Shown: positions 17,390 to 23,817 of the stretch, in pieces
Numbering within the stretch: the first letter of the stretch is position 1
How the letters are laid out: the number at the start of each line of letters is the position of its first letter
NCBI RefSeq assembly: GCF_004634425.1
Contig: NZ_SBJL01000001.1
Coordinates: 779,001-843,000, forward strand
Direction of reading: 5' to 3'
Source: Vitreimonas flagellata
Lineage (GTDB): Bacteria; Pseudomonadota; Alphaproteobacteria; Caulobacterales; Aquidulcibacteraceae
DNA length: 64,000 nt
The notes under the pieces: generated by a model
Seen by the model: the letters and a program-made list of their open reading frames with translations, nothing else
Told to the model about the DNA's origin: nothing
The model's database searches: none
Made by a program: the position numbers and the translations under genes

Positions 17390-18066
17390 CACATCGCCTC
17401 CGCTAAAACATCCACTTGCCATTTGCGCTGCTCGTACGCTGGCTCACGTCGCCGGCGCCGCGCATTCCAAGCTCCCTCGTTCACGCGCTCGAGCGCTTTG
17501 AGCAGCACTTTGCTCACGTTCGAATTGTCGATGCGAAAACGGGTTGCGATCGCGCGAAGCGTCAGATCCTCGACCAGCCAGGCGCGCAGCATGCCGACGT
17601 CGCGCGCGCCGGCGGCGGCCTCTGCAGAGCGCAGTCGATCGAGCGCATCCTCGCGCCTGGCCTGCGGCGCGCGCGTTGAAACACCGCCGCCCGACGGCAT
17701 CAGCGCAAAGCACTCGCTCATGCCGCGGCGTAGGCGCTCCAGGCGCAGGCCTCCCGATGGCGGCAACAGCGCCAGGAAGTCCTGCTCGATACAGCGCGCC
17801 ACGCGATAGAGATCGTCCTGGCCGCGCAGAAAGCCGCGCCGGAATGCACGCTCGCAGCCGTCGAGCACGCGCGTGCGGCGCACCTTCTCGTTCGCATCGT
17901 CAGCCATCAGCTCGATCGTGCGCGGGGCCAGAGGCTGCTCGAGCGCCACCACCTTAGCCGGCTTCACAGCGATCGCGCCTGCGCGCTTGGCGCGCGCCTG
18001 GTCGATCCGCTTGCGCGGCGGCGGTCGAACGACATCGACCTCGATGGTGTGCTTGGTGACCTTCAT
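17389..18066 (-). CDS. Phage HTH protein, probable transcription regulator
   Basis: The ATG at 18066 (MKVTKHTIEVDVVRPPP) overlaps the upstream stop (ATGA), so I take it rather than the earlier in-frame codon, which would read back through the DnaA-like gene. The 225-residue product is basic, with a C-terminal helix-turn-helix at about residues 170-205 (LTLRAIATRFRIDNSNVSK) and an Arg/Lys-rich tail. The N-terminal half contains an Arg-rich region and a VLDGCERAFRRGFLRGQDD segment. Position immediately before the late genes suggests a late-gene regulator, but this is inference. Confidence 0.6.
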   Translation of the reverse strand: MKVTKHTIEVDVVRPPPRKRIDQARAKRAGAIAVKPAKVVALEQPLAPRTIELMADDANEKVRRTRVLDGCERAFRRGFLRGQDDLYRVARCIEQDFLALLPPSGGLRLERLRRGMSECFALMPSGGGVSTRAPQARREDALDRLRSAEAAAGARDVGMLRAWLVEDLTLRAIATRFRIDNSNVSKVLLKALERVNEGAWNARRRRREPAYEQRKWQVDVLAEAM

Positions 18067-18350
18067 GCGCCTGGCGCCGGGCTCCGTGGCTGCTTGGCTT
18101 CGATCTCGCCCAGCGCGTAGAGCACGCTGGTGTGGTCGCGATTGAAGAGCGCGCCGATCTTCGGCGTCGACCAGCCGCGCATGCGCAGCACGCGAAACGC
18201 CGCCCACCTGGCGCGCACGATGTGACGCCGGCGGCTCGCGCTCTTCATCTCTTCGAGCGAGACGCCGAACTCACGCTCGATCGCGCGCAGCGCCTGGCGT
18301 GCGCTGTCGTTGTTGGCGATCACGCGTGGGTGTGCATTTTCCGGAGCCAT
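18063..18350 (-). CDS. Stand-alone DnaA domain IV-like DNA-binding protein
   Basis: A 95-residue protein. Residues 22-38 form a helix and residues 40-82 match the C-terminal DNA-binding domain of DnaA: basic RRRHIVRARW at 40-49 (standing for the R..iv.AR motif), then KIGALFNRDHTSVLYAL (64-80), with RDH at 71-73, the signature that contacts the DnaA box. There is no AAA+ domain, so it cannot act as an initiator by itself. It could bind DnaA-box-like sites, repress, or compete with host DnaA. It lies directly downstream of a nuclease-like gene and close to the phage replication genes. Confidence 0.8.
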   Translation of the reverse strand: MAPENAHPRVIANNDSARQALRAIEREFGVSLEEMKSASRRRHIVRARWAAFRVLRMRGWSTPKIGALFNRDHTSVLYALGEIEAKQPRSPAPGA

Positions 18351-18790: not shown

Positions 18791-18965
18791 GGCGCTCACC
18801 TCGCCAGTCGTGACCAAGGCGATCCTTAATCACGAGCTCGCTGCGCAGCTTGTCGAGAAACGCCGAAAAGTCGGGGCGTGAGCTGCGGTGCGTTTCCTCG
18901 AGCGTGTCGATAAACGCGCGCTGCAGCGCTTCACGCAGATCGTCGGTGATGACTTCCTTAGCCAT
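18783..18965 (-). CDS. Small phage hypothetical protein, 60 aa
   Basis: A short helical protein (MAKEVITDDLREALQRAFID, then TLEETHRSSRPDFSAFLDKL) with an Arg-rich C-terminus. It overlaps the stop of the upstream gene by eight bases and the start of the nuclease-like gene by about eight, so it is part of a coupled chain. No domain is recognised. Confidence 0.5.
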   Translation of the reverse strand: MAKEVITDDLREALQRAFIDTLEETHRSSRPDFSAFLDKLRSELVIKDRLGHDWRGERRV

Positions 18966-19524
18966 CGACCGCCTCCTGATCTTCGGTGCGTTGCGGCCAA
19001 GAGCCGTCGCGGAAGCGCTGCGCGAGCTCGTCCGACATTTCGATGGTGACGGGCGGCACGATCACGATGCCCGAGCCTCGGCCAAGTCGTGCGCGCAGCG
19101 TCGCCAGATCGTCTGCAGAGACGTAGTCGCGCGCGACCTGGTCGGGCCCGCGCAGCAGCTCCTGGGCGCGTGCGTTGAGCGAGCGACGCGCGTTGTAGAT
19201 CGGCTCGCCCAGCGCTTTCAGCTCACCAGGTACGCTCGGCGCGAACGGGCGATCCTCGGCGCACCATTGGGTGACGGCCGCCTGCAGCACGTCGACCGGC
19301 CAATGGCCGATCACCGCGAGCCACATCTGCTTGTCCATAAGCGAGAACGCCGGCGAGTCCGGACGGCCGCGATAGCGCGACATCAGAAACTCGACCCAGG
19401 TCGCCACCGCCTCACGAGCCGCCGGCCGCAGTGCGTCTTGGATCATTGGCAAATAGATCCGCACCGCCTCCCGCTCCTGGTTCGTCGCGATCCCCTCCTT
19501 GGCCAGATCCAGGAACGACGTCAT
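18958..19524 (-). CDS. Phage protein next to the replication initiator, 188 aa
   Basis: I place the start at the ATG at 19524 (MTSFLDLAKEGIATNQERE); earlier in-frame codons would overlap the initiator gene by more than 200 bases. Even so it overlaps the upstream initiator reading frame by 113 bases, and the initiator's C-terminal residues there look like out-of-frame Gly/Ala/Asp-rich translation. The product is helical with conserved-looking WLAVIGHWPVDVLQAAVTQW (about 79-98) and FAPSVPGELKALGEP. A C-terminal helix ends QRTEDQEAVDG. It may be a helicase-loader or other replication partner by position only. Confidence 0.6.
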   Translation of the reverse strand: MTSFLDLAKEGIATNQEREAVRIYLPMIQDALRPAAREAVATWVEFLMSRYRGRPDSPAFSLMDKQMWLAVIGHWPVDVLQAAVTQWCAEDRPFAPSVPGELKALGEPIYNARRSLNARAQELLRGPDQVARDYVSADDLATLRARLGRGSGIVIVPPVTIEMSDELAQRFRDGSWPQRTEDQEAVDG

Positions 19525-20515
19525 GCTCAGCCGCGCTAAGCACAGCGCTCCAGGATGCGCGTCGATTTCGGGTAAGGGCCGACTCACGCTCGGCAGCATT
19601 GAGCGGGCGGAAATTGTCAGCTGTTGCTGCATTGAGCGTCTCCGGTGCATCGGTGAGCGAAGCTGCGGCTTTTTCGGCCGCGAACTCGCGCATCGCTTTG
19701 GTGAAAAAATTCCAGGTCGTGATGTCGTCGGCTTGTGGGTTGCGGCGATCGCGGACCTCGAGCACGTGGCAGATCACCAGCGCGATCTCCTCGATCGAGA
19801 GCTCAAGGCGCTGAAACGCGGCCACCCACGCCGTCGTCGTGACGAGGCCCGGCGCCTTGGTCGGATCGAGCTTCGGGTGGTTGACCAGCGCGACAAGCTC
19901 GCCGGCCGCGCCCTTCAACCCACCGGCCGATCCACGCGGTCGCGGGAACGAGGAGGAGTCTGGTGGTTCAATGAAGGATTCTGCAGCCGCAACAGGTGCG
20001 GCCCCCCGGGCCGCAGCACGTGCGGCCCCCTCCGCCGCAACTTCGCCCCCCGCCGCAATTGTGCGGTCCGTTTCGTCGTCGCCAGCAGCCGCACTTTTGC
20101 GGCCCCCCTCGCGGGGTGCATCTTCTTGCTCTGGCAACGTGCGGCGGGCCGCAGAATTGCGGCGGGGTCGTTCCACATCACCGGCCGCAGAAGTGCGGCT
20201 GGTGTCGGCCTCACATTGCGCGCACGCGCGCTGGCCCTTGATGTGCAGGTAGTACGCGTTTGAAAGCGTCGTGACGTTGCCGTTGGCGCTCACCCGATTG
20301 CGCGGCGCGCGGCACATCATGCCTGCCTCGATCAGCTCGTTGGCGCGTCGATCGACGGTGTCGACGCTTTTCTCGATCCGCTCGGCCAAGCGACCGCGCG
20401 ACGGCCAGCACACGCCGTTCTCGTCGGCATAGTCCGACAACACGTGCAGCAGCCGCGCGCAGCCGTCGCTCAGTCCGCGTTGCCGGAACGCCCAGTGCAT
20501 GGCCTCGATGCTCAA
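19412..20515 (-). CDS. HTH replication initiator-like protein
   Basis: A 367-residue protein. Residues 1-75 form a winged-helix (HTH_36-type) domain: EAMHWAFRQRGLSDGCARLL, then WPSRGRLAERIEKSVDTVDR, then ELIEAGMMCR. A basic Ala/Arg/Gly linker with repeated R-x-S-A-A units follows (about 90-185), then a helical C-terminal domain (HPKLDPTKAPGLVTTTAWV, about 205-300). This arrangement (N-terminal HTH, variable linker, helical C-terminus) matches lambda O-type initiators. The linker's DNA carries six palindromes (see the candidate origin). The last 38 or so codons overlap the next gene and look unconstrained. Confidence 0.7.
   Translation of the reverse strand: MSIEAMHWAFRQRGLSDGCARLLHVLSDYADENGVCWPSRGRLAERIEKSVDTVDRRANELIEAGMMCRAPRNRVSANGNVTTLSNAYYLHIKGQRACAQCEADTSRTSAAGDVERPRRNSAARRTLPEQEDAPREGGRKSAAAGDDETDRTIAAGGEVAAEGAARAAARGAAPVAAAESFIEPPDSSSFPRPRGSAGGLKGAAGELVALVNHPKLDPTKAPGLVTTTAWVAAFQRLELSIEEIALVICHVLEVRDRRNPQADDITTWNFFTKAMREFAAEKAAASLTDAPETLNAATADNFRPLNAAERESALTRNRRASWSAVLSAAEHDVVPGSGQGGDRDEPGAGGGADLFANDPRRTAAGGS
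19986..20199. repeat. Palindrome array in the initiator gene, candidate phage origin
   Basis: Six copies of GCCGCA-N4/5-TGCGGC lie at 19986-20002, 20010-20026, 20052-20067 (last base T), 20088-20103, 20148-20163 and 20184-20199, with half-sites at 20034-20039 and 20140-20145. Full sites 3-4 and 5-6 are each 36 bases apart, and every spacing is a multiple of three. They encode repeated R-x-S/I-A-A peptides, so coding repeats may contribute. Arrays of dyads inside an initiator gene recall the lambda O origin. Binding by the HTH domain of the same gene is an inference. Confidence 0.6.
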
Positions 20516-20805
20516 GCGACGGCCCCCAGCGCCGCCTGGCTGCGCTTGGGTGCAGCCCGCACCTCGATGTCGAACCAGCCCGGCCTGCCCTCTGCCGCGC
20601 GCGTGGTGGCCAACCCGTGGCCGGTACGCACGACGCGCAGCACCTCGGCCGTCGGATACGTCGGGCCCTTGCCCGGTAGCCGGCCGCGCTCTTCAAAATG
20701 GTGGCCCGTGAACCAGAGCACGGCGCCACCGTCGAGCACTTCCATGATCGTCTTGCGCGTCTCGAGGTGCGCCTTTCGGGTGGTGCGGGTCAGCGGTTTG
20801 CGCAT
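20512..20805 (-). CDS. Small phage hypothetical protein, 97 aa
   Basis: Start at the ATG at 20805 (TGATG overlap with the GcrA-like stop) with GGGAGG seven bases upstream. A basic N-terminal region (MRKPLTRTTRKAHLETRK) is followed by a beta-rich core (GGAVLWFTGHHFEERGRL) and a C-terminal part with WFDIEVRAAPKR. No family is recognised. It is encoded between the GcrA-like and initiator genes, so it probably belongs to the replication/regulation module. Confidence 0.55.
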   Translation of the reverse strand: MRKPLTRTTRKAHLETRKTIMEVLDGGAVLWFTGHHFEERGRLPGKGPTYPTAEVLRVVRTGHGLATTRAAEGRPGWFDIEVRAAPKRSQAALGAVA

Positions 20806-21398
20806 CACAACGCCTCCCGCAGATCGATTGTGCCGACGCCGAAAGCGCCGCGGCGCTGACGCTGGCGATCCCGCGCCTCGAGCAATTTGCGCACGCCGGC
20901 GACGCTGGCGTCGACCTGCGGCTTGCTCGCCTTCTCGTAAACCAGCTTGCGGTGCTCGGCGCAGTAGACCTGCGTTCCATCGGTCGCACGGCCGCAGAAC
21001 GCAAAATCAGCGTCGCAACGCGGGTCTCCGATGCCGAATTTGCACTCGCCTATGTAGCGGAGCGTGAGCGCGCTGCGTGGCGCGCCATCGATCTCGATCG
21101 GCCGCAGCGCACGTACGCGTGCGAGCTCTTCGCCAGGTGAAAGCTTCGCCGGCTTTGGATTGACGCGTGGCGCTTTCATCACCACCGCGCGCGTCGCGCG
21201 TTTTGGCCGAGCGCCACCATTGGCTCGCCCGCCGACGCGCGCAACGCGGGCGCCAAGCCCCAACCGATGCACCTTGCCGATCACGGCGTTGCGCGTGACG
21301 CCTCCGAGCGCCCTCGCTATCTCGCCGCTAGAGAGGCCTTCGCTCCACAATTTGCCAAGCGTTGCGATGCGTTCTGCTGTCCAGCCAATTTCTGACAT
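20805..21398 (-). CDS. Phage GcrA-family cell-cycle regulator
   Basis: A 197-residue protein whose residues 3-50 match the GcrA signature: WTAERIATLGKLWSEGLSS, then IARALGGVTRNAVIGKVHRL. The C-terminal part has a Cys/His cluster (CKFGIGDPRCDADFAFCG, then VYCAEHRKLVYEK, about residues 130-165) as in the GcrA family. In Caulobacter, GcrA works with sigma-70 and CcrM (GANTC) methylation to time cell-cycle transcription. A phage homologue may control phage promoters or redirect host cell-cycle genes. The N-terminal W..E....L...W..G.S...IA motif is intact. Family assignment is firm; the role in the phage is inferred. Confidence 0.85.
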   Translation of the reverse strand: MSEIGWTAERIATLGKLWSEGLSSGEIARALGGVTRNAVIGKVHRLGLGARVARVGGRANGGARPKRATRAVVMKAPRVNPKPAKLSPGEELARVRALRPIEIDGAPRSALTLRYIGECKFGIGDPRCDADFAFCGRATDGTQVYCAEHRKLVYEKASKPQVDASVAGVRKLLEARDRQRQRRGAFGVGTIDLREAL

Positions 21399-21434: not shown

Positions 21435-21800
21435 TCACGCTGCGAAAGCGTGTTCAACCCCCCCCCCTGTGGAAAACCCCAAGCCCGTATTGATGCCGTC
21501 TTTCGTGGCCAGGTAGACCGCTGCGCGGATGATGCGCGCGTCGACGCCGAGCTTGTCGGCGATGATCGAAACCTCGAGCCCCTTACGATAAAGCTCAGCG
21601 GCGCGATCCTTGATCTGCGCTGCAGCGTAAAGCTCGCGAACCGAGTGCGACGGAAACTCGCCGCGCGCATCGCCGTCGTCGCGCGCTTTCTGCGCGATGC
21701 GATAGATGTTGCGATCACTGCATTCGAAACGCGCAGCGATCGAGCTCGCCGGCTCGCCGGCCGACCACGCATCGAGCACCTTGTCCACATCGACGGTCAT
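21435..21800 (-). CDS. HTH DNA-binding phage protein, 121 aa
   Basis: A small protein with two helix-turn-helix-like segments: VLDAWSAGEPASSIAARFEC (residues 8-27) and LYRKGLEVSIIADKLGVDAR (about 70-89). It shares four bases (ATGA) with the end of the upstream repeat-containing gene. Close to its 3' end the coding strand has a run of ten G (21458-21467 as C on the given strand), so slippage could change the last residues (GLGFSTGGGVEHAFAA). Likely a transcription regulator of the early unit; no family name assigned. Confidence 0.6.
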   Translation of the reverse strand: MTVDVDKVLDAWSAGEPASSIAARFECSDRNIYRIAQKARDDGDARGEFPSHSVRELYAAAQIKDRAAELYRKGLEVSIIADKLGVDARIIRAAVYLATKDGINTGLGFSTGGGVEHAFAA

Positions 21801-22345
21801 GCGGCAGCCGCGGACTGATCGCGCAGCAGCGCGTCAACACACGTCTCCATGTCGTGACCTTGTGCACGCAGCGCGATCGCGCGATCGACGTGCTGCTTGA
21901 GCATCGGCAAGCCCGCAGTGCGCACCGCTTTGCGCGCCCACGAACGAGATTTGCGAGCGCGCACCTCGGGATCGGCCCACGCTTTTTTGCGGGCCTCGCT
22001 CATGCGAGCGCGCACCTCGGGATCGGCCCACGCTTTTTTGCGGGCCTCGCTCATGCGAGCGCGCACCTCGGGATCGGCCCACGCTTTTTTGCGGGCCTCG
22101 CTCATGCGAGCGCGCACCTCGGGATCGGTACGACGGTCCGGCAGACCCAGGACATTGGCCTTGGCCGAAACGGCCGATTTGGTGATGCCGAGCAGCTGGC
22201 CTATCGCTAGAGGCGAAGTGTTGGCCAACCACTCTGCCCGCAGGAACTCAAGTCGCTCCGGGGTCCACTTGAAGTTCTTCCGCCCGCCAGAACCGGCGCG
22301 TGCGTTCGCATCCGGCGCGACGGCCGGCGTAGCACCCATCGTCAT
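21797..22345 (-). CDS. GcrA-type HTH protein with 17-residue tandem repeats
   Basis: A 182-residue protein. Residues 25-70 carry a GcrA-like DNA-binding domain (WTPERLEFLRAEWLANTSPL, then QLLGITKSAVSAKANVLGL). It is followed by three exact 17-residue units (DPEVRARMSEARKKAWA) and a partial fourth, a charged helical repeat, and a C-terminal helix with MLKQHVDRAIALRAQGHDME. The repeats are identical in the DNA (51 bases). Repeats of this kind follow DNA-binding or NUMOD-like domains in phages, perhaps as basic DNA-contact helices. It follows the Cro-like gene directly in the leftward early unit. Confidence 0.65.
   Translation of the reverse strand: MTMGATPAVAPDANARAGSGGRKNFKWTPERLEFLRAEWLANTSPLAIGQLLGITKSAVSAKANVLGLPDRRTDPEVRARMSEARKKAWADPEVRARMSEARKKAWADPEVRARMSEARKKAWADPEVRARKSRSWARKAVRTAGLPMLKQHVDRAIALRAQGHDMETCVDALLRDQSAAAA
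21953..22127 (-). repeat. Three perfect 51-bp tandem repeats plus partial copy
   Basis: Copies at 21953-22003, 22004-22054 and 22055-22105, and a partial copy to about 22127, each coding for DPEVRARMSEARKKAWA. No mismatch is seen by eye among the full copies. The frame-preserving length means copy number can change without breaking the protein. Confidence 0.9.
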
Positions 22346-22761: not shown

Positions 22762-23112
22762 ATGCAATCGAGTGCGCCTCCCCGGCCGACATACACTCCA
22801 GCGCTGATCTCAGCTTGGCTTGAACACCTCGGCTGGAAGCCCGCACAATTGGCTCGCGCCGTTGGAATTTCCGCTATGCAGATCGGCCGCTTGGCCAAGG
22901 GCGAACGCCCATATACCCAGCCAAATATCGAAGCGATCGCGAAAGCGCTTGGCGTCACGGTGGTGGAGCTTTTGGCCGTCGATCCAACCGATCCACAAAG
23001 CCGCTTACGCGTTGCCGCAGAGATCGCACGAATCCCGCCTGAACGGTACGCCGAGGCCATTTCTTACCTCGCTTATCTGGCCGAAAAACGAATCACCCCG
23101 GACGCCGAATAG
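22762..23112 (+). CDS. CI-like (XRE family) phage repressor
   Basis: A 116-residue protein with an N-terminal XRE helix-turn-helix (residues 12-72): LISAWLEHLGWKPAQLARAV, then ISAMQIGRLAKGERPYTQP, then IEAIAKALGVTVVELLAVDP. The remaining C-terminal 45 residues form one or two helices (RLRVAAEIARIPPERYAEAI), with no LexA/S24-type self-cleavage domain. So induction would need another route than RecA-driven autocleavage. It is divergent from the Cro-like gene and convergent in orientation with the rightward early promoter, the centre of the lysogeny switch. Confidence 0.8.
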   Translation: MQSSAPPRPTYTPALISAWLEHLGWKPAQLARAVGISAMQIGRLAKGERPYTQPNIEAIAKALGVTVVELLAVDPTDPQSRLRVAAEIARIPPERYAEAISYLAYLAEKRITPDAE

Positions 23113-23211: not shown

Positions 23212-23817
23212 ATGACGCAGGCATATCCCCTCGCGTGGCCGGATGGTTGGCCGCGCACACCGAAACACCGGCAGACCTCCAGCCGCTTCAAGGTCACCCA
23301 AGATCGCGCGCGGCGCAATCTGCTCGACCAGCTGCGCATGCTGGGCGCCACGCAGGGCCGCACGGTGATCTCGTCCGACGTCGCCGTTCGCCAAGACGGC
23401 CAGCCCTACGCCGACCAGGCGCGTCGGCTCATCCACGATCCGGGTGTCGCCGTTTATTTTGAGCTCGACGGCAAGGCGATGGTGATGGCCTGCGATCTCT
23501 ACACGCAGCCCTTCGAAAACATGCACGCGCTCGGCCACGCGATCGAGCATCTGCGCGGCCTCGATCGCCACGGCGGCGGCCACATGATCGAGCGCGCGTT
23601 TACGGGCTTTCAGGCCCTCCCGCCGCCGTCCACCAGCGAGCGCACCTGGTGGGACGTGCTCGAGTGCACGCGCGACGCCTCGATCGACGTCATCCGCGCC
23701 CAACACCGCCGGCTTTTAATGGATCACCATCCAGATCGCGGCGGCAGCGACGCACGCATGGCCGAGATCAATAGGGCTCGCGACAAAGCGATGGCCGAGC
23801 GGAGTATCCGCGCGTGA
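23212..23817 (+). CDS. Phage J-domain protein
   Basis: A 201-residue protein. The N-terminal part (residues 1-60) is basic and helical (RFKVTQDRARRNLLDQLR), the middle has DPGVAVYFELDGKAMVMACD and HALGHAIEHLRGLDRHGG, and residues 145-198 form a C-terminal J domain with WWDVL...IRAQHRRLLM and HPD at 173-175 followed by RGGSDARMAEINRARD. The HPD loop stimulates DnaK ATPase, so the protein probably recruits the host chaperone. It is the first gene of the rightward unit and its start codon is nearly at the mRNA 5' end, without Shine-Dalgarno. Confidence 0.85.
   Translation: MTQAYPLAWPDGWPRTPKHRQTSSRFKVTQDRARRNLLDQLRMLGATQGRTVISSDVAVRQDGQPYADQARRLIHDPGVAVYFELDGKAMVMACDLYTQPFENMHALGHAIEHLRGLDRHGGGHMIERAFTGFQALPPPSTSERTWWDVLECTRDASIDVIRAQHRRLLMDHHPDRGGSDARMAEINRARDKAMAERSIRA

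What the first reader, a model, noticed from the sequence alone, without database searches (positions are those of the whole stretch)
19986..20199. Six-fold palindrome array inside the replication initiator gene: candidate origin
Six copies of GCCGCA-N4/5-TGCGGC within 214 bases, plus two half-sites, inside an O-like initiator gene. In lambda the origin is also inside the O gene, in repeats bound by O. Two pairs are each 36 bases apart. The dyads have variable loops while the arms are constant, and the encoded peptide is a poorly constrained Ala/Arg linker, so the DNA rather than the peptide may be selected. The sequence is GC-rich; an AT-rich unwinding region next to it is not obvious, which is a weakness.
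Basis: partly seen in the sequence, partly recalled or inferred. Interest (0 to 1): 0.75.

Follow-up and report, generated by a model that had tools for sequence, protein, structure and literature searches.

The report
Lambda-style replication origin inside initiator gene
A dormant virus in a bacterial genome carries, inside the gene for its own replication starter protein, a row of short mirror-image DNA sites next to an easily melted stretch, very probably the place where the virus starts copying its DNA, built like the origin of phage lambda but with its own site sequence.

Summary
In detail: five perfect GCCGCA-N4/5-TGCGGC dyads and a sixth with one changed base lie at 19986-20199 inside an O-like initiator gene (19412-20515, minus strand); 5000 synonymous shuffles never gave more than two. 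Comparison supports the origin reading. A DNA-only search for two close dyads found 20 viral stretches, 16 with the array inside a winged-helix ORF, and 90 genome stretches, 31 likewise. Some other O-like genes carry arrays with different arms in the same place. The recognition helix goes with the arms: R-D-D in 40 of 43 GCCGCA rows, 0 of 46 GTGACA rows. This is the layout of phage lambda's origin, so I file it as a new member of a known kind. Binding and firing are untested. Many order-level relatives and four named phages show no clear array, and the helix-arm link is only partly independent of ancestry.

The parts
19412..20515 (-). O-like replication initiator gene, 367 aa (TTG start); winged helix in residues 1-97, low-confidence (probably disordered) linker 104-201, C-terminal helices
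   Evidence: PF13730 HTH_36 residues 14-65 E 2.6e-10; phrog_1032 E 2.9e-15 and phrog_391 'O-like' E 6.4e-14; AlphaFold2 from 6 sequences, mean pLDDT 53, residues 104-201 below 50
20184..20199 (.). iteron dyad 1 (gene order), loop 4
   Evidence: perfect GCCGCA-N4-TGCGGC
20148..20163 (.). iteron dyad 2, loop 4
   Evidence: perfect
20088..20103 (.). iteron dyad 3, loop 4
   Evidence: perfect
20052..20067 (.). iteron dyad 4, loop 4, one mismatch
   Evidence: last base T instead of C on the + strand
20010..20026 (.). iteron dyad 5, loop 5
   Evidence: perfect
19986..20002 (.). iteron dyad 6, loop 5, next to the AT-rich tract
   Evidence: perfect
20034..20039 (+). half-site GCCGCA
20140..20145 (+). 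half-site TGCGGC
19947..19986 (.). candidate unwinding region, 3' of the array in gene direction (touches the last dyad by one base)
   Evidence: weakest 40-base duplex among 1065 positions in the gene; for 30- and 20-base windows the best adjacent position ranks third and tenth; first 20 bases 60% AT against 34% for the gene
20348..20398 (-). codons 40-56: start of helix 2 to recognition helix, with R40, D52, D55, the residues that go with GCCGCA arms
   Evidence: numbering from alignment A2; group comparison; helices 40-47 and 51-63 in the model
18958..19524 (-). downstream gene overlapping the end of the initiator gene; candidate helicase loader by position
   Evidence: 29% identical to the gene after the array in L165; no PHROGs hit at E 10 and no Pfam hit at E 0.01; hhalign to lambda P and QHHSV-1 P: P-value 0.0014, probability 17.7, inconclusive

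Best explanation
The array is the iteron cluster of a lambda-type replication origin of an integrated prophage. The prophage's O-like protein binds each GCCGCA-N4/5-TGCGGC dyad through its N-terminal winged helix, probably as a dimer with one subunit per arm, and several bound copies wrap the DNA. The AT-rich 40 bases directly 3' of the array (19947-19986) then open, and the C-terminal part of the protein with the product of the next gene brings in the host helicase. Shown here: the sites and their non-randomness, the position inside the gene, constant arms against variable loops and peptides, the recognition-helix correspondence, and the weak duplex beside them. Inferred: protein binding, dimer geometry, unwinding, helicase loading and origin activity.
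For: Chance excluded. The same dyad, found by DNA alone, lies inside winged-helix ORFs in 16 of 20 viral and 31 of 90 genome stretches, while such ORFs cover 10.9% and 5.7% of the fetched bases; without the three loci used to build my HMM and without the phage itself 13 of 16, binomial p 1e-10; 31 of 90, p 1e-16. 38 of the 47 ORFs (window phage included) match Pfam HTH_36 at E 0.01. Without the window phage, 57 of 93 steps are 24 or 23 bases. Other O-like genes carry other arms at the same place, e.g. L008 with four GTGACA-N4-TGTCAC-type dyads at 23-base steps, 0 of 200 shuffles. The window residues R40, D52, D55 are those of the GCCGCA group: 40 of 43 unique rows have R-D-D, 0 of 46 GTGACA rows do. 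AT excess of +0.194 +/- 0.014 and +0.142 +/- 0.012 in the first two 20-base bins 3' of the array, none comparable 5' (43 loci). Prophage context: head, portal, terminase, integrase. Lambda control: the same finder recovers three of the four annotated iterons, 0 of 200 shuffles.
Against: No binding or replication data. In the order-level set 17 of 29 other O-like loci gave at most one dyad and 7 gave two. The four named phages fetched as best whole-protein or N-terminal matches (ValentiniPuff, QHHSV-1, RcDormio, ppBeUSDA76-1) gave one or two dyads, no better than shuffles. 59 of 90 genome hits are not inside such an ORF. Three GCCGCA rows break the R-D-D rule (L061, L155, L245) and ancestry explains part of it. 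The AT tract of the window is short (60% then 40% AT). Steps in the window (24, 42, 36, 60, 36) are less regular than in relatives, and two loops are 5 bases where all 139 other in-ORF dyads have 4 (the search pattern itself asked for one 4-base loop). GC skew shows no turn at the array. The loader gene is not identified.
Confidence: 0.87

Rival explanations
1. The dyads are operators: the O-like protein or another prophage DNA-binding protein binds them to control transcription of the early genes, and replication starts elsewhere.
For: The winged helix resembles transcription regulators (MarR, GntR, CRP matches); genes with HTH_3 domains lie near.
Against: The sites lie mid-gene with no other perfect site in the window; the arms go with the initiator's own recognition helix; an AT-rich tract lies on one fixed side. 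Both roles could coexist.
Confidence: 0.08
2. The repeats are a by-product of an Ala/Arg-rich peptide linker in GC-rich DNA, or of in-frame duplication.
For: All left arms, the half-site at 20034 included, lie in one codon phase with steps that are multiples of six (positions).
Against: 0 of 5000 synonymous shuffles reach three perfect dyads; 29 of 46 other arrays place dyads in more than one frame; the 4-base and 5-base copies code for different peptides; loops all differ.
Confidence: 0.02
3. The array is a partition or incompatibility site of a plasmid-like prophage.
For: In L061 three GCCGCA dyads lie about 100 bases outside the winged-helix ORF, in a locus with a ParA-like ORF (the ParA label is mine, from its sequence).
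Against: The window has an integrase gene and no ParA was seen among the ORFs that I scanned (not a full annotation); the sites sit in the initiator gene with an AT tract, as origins do.
Confidence: 0.03

Closest known systems
Origin of phage lambda (inside gene O)
   Same: Inverted-repeat iterons with arms of about six bases in the middle of the initiator gene; A-rich tract just 3' of the last iteron; replication gene P next (record annotation; dyads; tract; PMC7466680 passages).
   Different: Lambda has four iterons with TCCCTC-type arms at 20-24 base steps; here six with GCCGCA arms, uneven steps and a less AT-rich tract in a 66% GC gene; the downstream gene has no clear similarity to P.
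Origins of Shiga-toxin converting lambdoid phages
   Same: Six iterons inside O, AT tract beside them (PMC7466680, passages).
   Different: Lambda-type iteron sequence as described there; I read passages on O and iterons and fetched no sequence of these phages.
RepA-like initiators of mycobacterial extrachromosomal prophages
   Same: Initiator with N-terminal helix-turn-helix; authors think the origin lies just upstream of or within repA, as in lambda (PMC7157519, passages).
HTH_36 Rep proteins of Paracoccus plasmids
   Same: Initiator with PF13730 and iteron-like repeats (PMC3832669, passages).
   Different: The passages describe repeats in oriVs outside the gene, one partial repeat overlapping the rep start codon, not an array inside the gene.
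RepA_N / iteron modules of the satellite PLE
   Same: DNA-binding domain covaries with semi-palindromic iterons, and the pairing was shown by swaps (PMC8263062, passages).
   Different: Different initiator domain; origin is intergenic.

Membership tests
Lambda-type origin embedded in an O-like initiator gene | Initiator of the O-like / HTH_36 kind with N-terminal DNA-binding domain | tested here: met
   PF13730 E 2.6e-10; phrog_391 'replication initiation O-like' E 6.4e-14; helices and wing in the model
Lambda-type origin embedded in an O-like initiator gene | Cluster of inverted-repeat iterons inside the initiator gene | tested here: met
   Five perfect and one imperfect dyad; 0 of 5000 shuffles reach three
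Lambda-type origin embedded in an O-like initiator gene | AT-rich, easily melted tract beside the iterons on the 3' side | tested here: met
   Weakest of 1065 40-base duplexes in the gene (third and tenth for 30 and 20 bases); family mean; short in the window
Lambda-type origin embedded in an O-like initiator gene | Gene for a helicase loader (P) directly downstream | tested here: inconclusive
   Gene present at that place; comparison with P gives P-value 0.0014 but probability 17.7; no family hit. A helicase loader is annotated after the related protein in phages DelaGarza and Kovu, whose loci have no GCCGCA dyads
Lambda-type origin embedded in an O-like initiator gene | Initiator binds the iterons | not testable with these tools
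   Only indirect: residue-to-arm correspondence, not fully independent of ancestry
Lambda-type origin embedded in an O-like initiator gene | Replication starts there | not testable with these tools
   GC skew is uninformative
In-frame coding repeat (peptide selected) | Copies share one reading frame in relatives | tested here: not met
   29 of 46 other arrays use more than one frame

The most novel reading that the evidence does not exclude
Winged-helix (HTH_36) initiators of phages and related elements in distant bacterial phyla use one modular origin, iteron dyads plus a 40-base strand-specific AT tract inside the initiator gene, and a few residues (R40, D52, D55 in the window's protein) set the dyad sequence, so that origins of uncharacterised phages could be read from the protein sequence.
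Probability: 0.5. Interest if true: 0.65.

Novelty: new member of a known kind. Interest (0 to 1): 0.5.

Why it matters
To my knowledge (recalled) phage origins outside a few models are seldom located. Here the likely origin of an otherwise unstudied prophage can be named to within 250 bases, with the protein that should bind it and the residues that should read it. The comparison suggests that the same design recurs and can be recognised in GC-rich phages, where AT-rich regions are hard to see by eye, and gives a testable rule linking recognition helix to iteron.

Tried and rejected
Peptide-repeat reading: rejected. GC skew as a mark of the origin: uninformative, the cumulative skew falls almost without a turn through the window. 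DnaA boxes: four matches with at most one mismatch in 17-23 kb, none in the array, not pursued. Whole-protein searches for close relatives gave the same phage and weak partial matches only: two phage records, two of 199 other genomes, none in genome contigs. Scrambled-arm control CCGGCA gave 6 stretches, 2 of them in a winged-helix ORF, possibly a further natural iteron type, so it is not a clean negative. GTGACA gave 79 stretches, 53 inside or within 150 bases of such an ORF, 26 not. CCGACA gave 11 stretches, of which only two (L346, L351) had a usable HTH row. Reverse test by protein: among 15 other class-level loci and 14 named phage or plasmid regions none has R-D-D and none has a GCCGCA dyad, so only the negative direction was tested. 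Four further named phages and the 29 other order-level loci also have no GCCGCA dyad, and the four show no clear array of another kind. Independence of the helix-arm link: nine arm changes on the best tree but only two forced by well-supported branches; a single GCCGCA clade is rejected with L155 (p 0.0036), not without it (p 0.185). Fold search: no match at E 0.001 or better. Literature: searches showed, in the rows listed (7 to 20 of up to 163 hits, 5, 2), no paper on this module; one search had no hit. The library is open-licence only, so this does not show that nothing is in print.

Full report
What is in the sequence. The array lies inside a minus-strand gene, 19412-20515, for a 367-residue protein with an HTH_36 winged helix near its N-terminus that matches PHROGs families named replication initiation and O-like. 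Five GCCGCA-N4/5-TGCGGC dyads are perfect and a sixth (20052-20067) has one changed base; two half-sites are present. Six different loops separate constant arms. Synonymous-codon shuffling, which keeps the protein and its codon use, gave at most two perfect dyads in 5000 trials. The host genome has 20 perfect dyads in 3.9 Mb, five of them here.

Surroundings. The window holds an integrated phage: major head protein, portal, large terminase and integrase genes are recognisable, and the initiator gene with its surroundings is also held in an IMG/VR viral contig of 35.8 kb (L004, protein 100% identical). The initiator gene is in a leftward run of genes for DNA-binding proteins, one GcrA homologue among them; an HTH_3 repressor-like gene points the other way (22762-23112). 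That GcrA is typical of alphaproteobacteria is recalled, not tested. The gene after the initiator (18958-19524) overlaps its end, has no family match, and resembles lambda P only suggestively.

Peptide or DNA. All left arms in the window share a codon phase, which by itself could mean a peptide repeat. Against that, the 4-base and 5-base loop copies code for different peptides, and of 46 other in-gene GCCGCA arrays 29 have dyads in more than one frame. A low-depth AlphaFold2 model (six sequences, mean pLDDT 53) puts residues 104-201 below pLDDT 50; the array codes for residues 106-177. The coded segment looks like a disordered linker, and the DNA is the more likely target of selection.

Relatives chosen by protein. 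Of 30 order-level loci taken with a phrog_1032 match (one is the window itself), 5 of the 29 others have three or more same-arm dyads in the part after the winged helix: L008 (four GTGACA-N4-TGTCAC-type at 23-base steps), L015, L025, L022 and L011; shuffles reached this 0 of 200 times in the first four and once in L011. Seven others had two and 17 at most one. L021, a broken gene, has four CGGCAC-type dyads at 22-base steps that lie outside the ORF examined. None of the 29 has a GCCGCA dyad. L010 aligns with the window protein over 298 residues (25%) and L009 over 120 residues of the C-terminal part (34%). L009, L010 and L013 each have two CCGACA-N3-TGTCGG-type dyads 75 bases apart, but shuffles reached two dyads in 28, 25 and 14 of 200, so these are weak. 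Four named phages fetched as best matches (ValentiniPuff, QHHSV-1, RcDormio, ppBeUSDA76-1) gave one or two dyads, no better than shuffles.

Relatives chosen by DNA. A search for two GCCGCA dyads with at most 32 bases between them, blind to proteins, gave 20 viral and 90 genome stretches. In 16 of 20 and 31 of 90 the array is inside an ORF with the winged helix, although such ORFs cover only 10.9% and 5.7% of the bases fetched. Removing the three loci used to build the HMM and the phage itself leaves 13 of 16. Pfam HTH_36 matches 38 of the 47 ORFs, the window phage included. Of the four viral misses, L061 and L168 have the array beside such an ORF, L165 starts at the array with the front of the gene cut off, and L161 has none near. 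Of the 59 genome misses 27 have all copies identical, so many are probably other repeats. Without the window phage, 57 of 93 steps are 24 or 23 bases and all 139 loops are 4; the pattern itself asked for one 4-base loop. The titles shown for in-ORF genome loci are mostly actinobacteria, with two Dehalococcoidia.

Helix and arms. For loci with at least two perfect dyads in or within 150 bases of a winged-helix ORF, unique helix rows were compared: 43 with GCCGCA and 46 with GTGACA (rows with fewer than 50 filled columns were dropped). The three most different columns read R, D, D in 41 of 43 GCCGCA rows each, and the middle one is R in all 46 GTGACA rows; 40 of 43 against 0 of 46 have all three. 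Exceptions are L061, L155 and L245. The window's protein has R40, D52 and D55, at the start of helix 2 and of the recognition helix. On a tree without four helix columns the three nearest rows to the window protein are GTGACA rows, but the tree is weak: nine changes of arms, two of them forced by supported branches; a single GCCGCA clade is rejected only when L155 is included. So the link is strong as a correlation and only partly independent of ancestry. Proteins found by sequence that lack R-D-D had no GCCGCA dyad (0 of 15 other class-level loci, 0 of 14 named regions); Salgado and Edmundo have other arrays there.

Unwinding region. Across 43 GCCGCA loci the first 20 bases 3' of the array exceed the gene's AT content by 0.194 +/- 0.014 and the next 20 by 0.142 +/- 0.012, with nothing comparable on the 5' side; 46 GTGACA loci show +0.089 and +0.144. 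In the window the first 20 bases are 60% AT against 34%, the next 40%. By nearest-neighbour energies 19947-19986 is the weakest of 1065 40-base duplexes in the gene; 1.9% of positions in the whole window are weaker; for 30 and 20 bases the adjacent stretch ranks third and tenth in the gene. L165 has 65% and 60% AT in the same bins, then 25%.

Known comparison. In lambda the record marks four iterons inside O, followed by P, and published work describes inverted-repeat iterons, an AT tract needed for unwinding and six iterons in Stx phages (PMC7466680, passages). The same finder applied to lambda O recovers three of the four iterons. The window element works like this kind of origin and meets the three sequence features that could be decided here; the P role is inconclusive, binding and firing are untested. 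Authors on mycobacterial prophage RepA suspected an origin in or beside repA but saw no repeats in the regions they inspected (PMC7157519, passages).

Verdict. Real, well above chance, and best explained as the prophage's replication origin. It is a new member of a known kind; the iteron shared across phyla and the helix correspondence are the parts that a specialist might not expect.

Noticed in passing
AT-rich tracts 3' of the arrays, e.g. L165:81-120, and L160, L286, L307, L345: The tracts carry strand-specific short repeats: over 71 non-redundant tracts (the AT-richest 40 bases near the 3' end of each array) AACCNTCA occurs 16 times against 0.3 in shuffles and 0 on the other strand, GAAC 51 against 18.2 and 11. 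The motifs were picked after looking, and most tracts are coding. The window tract has one GAACCACCA and no significant periodicity (p 0.68).
   Followed up: partly
21952-22128: Perfect 51-base tandem repeat, 3.5 copies, inside an ORF with a GcrA match (21797-22345).
   Followed up: no
18063-18350: Small protein that matches only the DnaA C-terminal DNA-binding domain (PF08299, E 1.6e-14), near the replication genes of the prophage.
   Followed up: no
20805-21398: Prophage-encoded GcrA cell-cycle regulator homologue (PF07750, E 2.5e-34).
   Followed up: no
23212-23817: ORF with a DnaJ domain at its C-terminus (PF00226, E 1.9e-6) next to the repressor-like gene.
   Followed up: no
L061:780-861: Three identical GCCGCA-CCCA-TGCGGC dyads at 33-base steps about 100 bases outside a winged-helix ORF, in a locus with a ParA-like ORF (my label); the array can lie outside the gene.
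   Followed up: no
L390 (Arthrobacter phage Edmundo) and L379 (Arthrobacter phage Salgado): Other iteron types inside the initiator-like gene: five ACCCCG-type dyads mostly at 24-base steps (Edmundo), four GGCCCG-type dyads (Salgado).
   Followed up: no
L021: Four CGGCAC-type dyads at 22-base steps in a broken O-like gene (stop codons inside).
   Followed up: no
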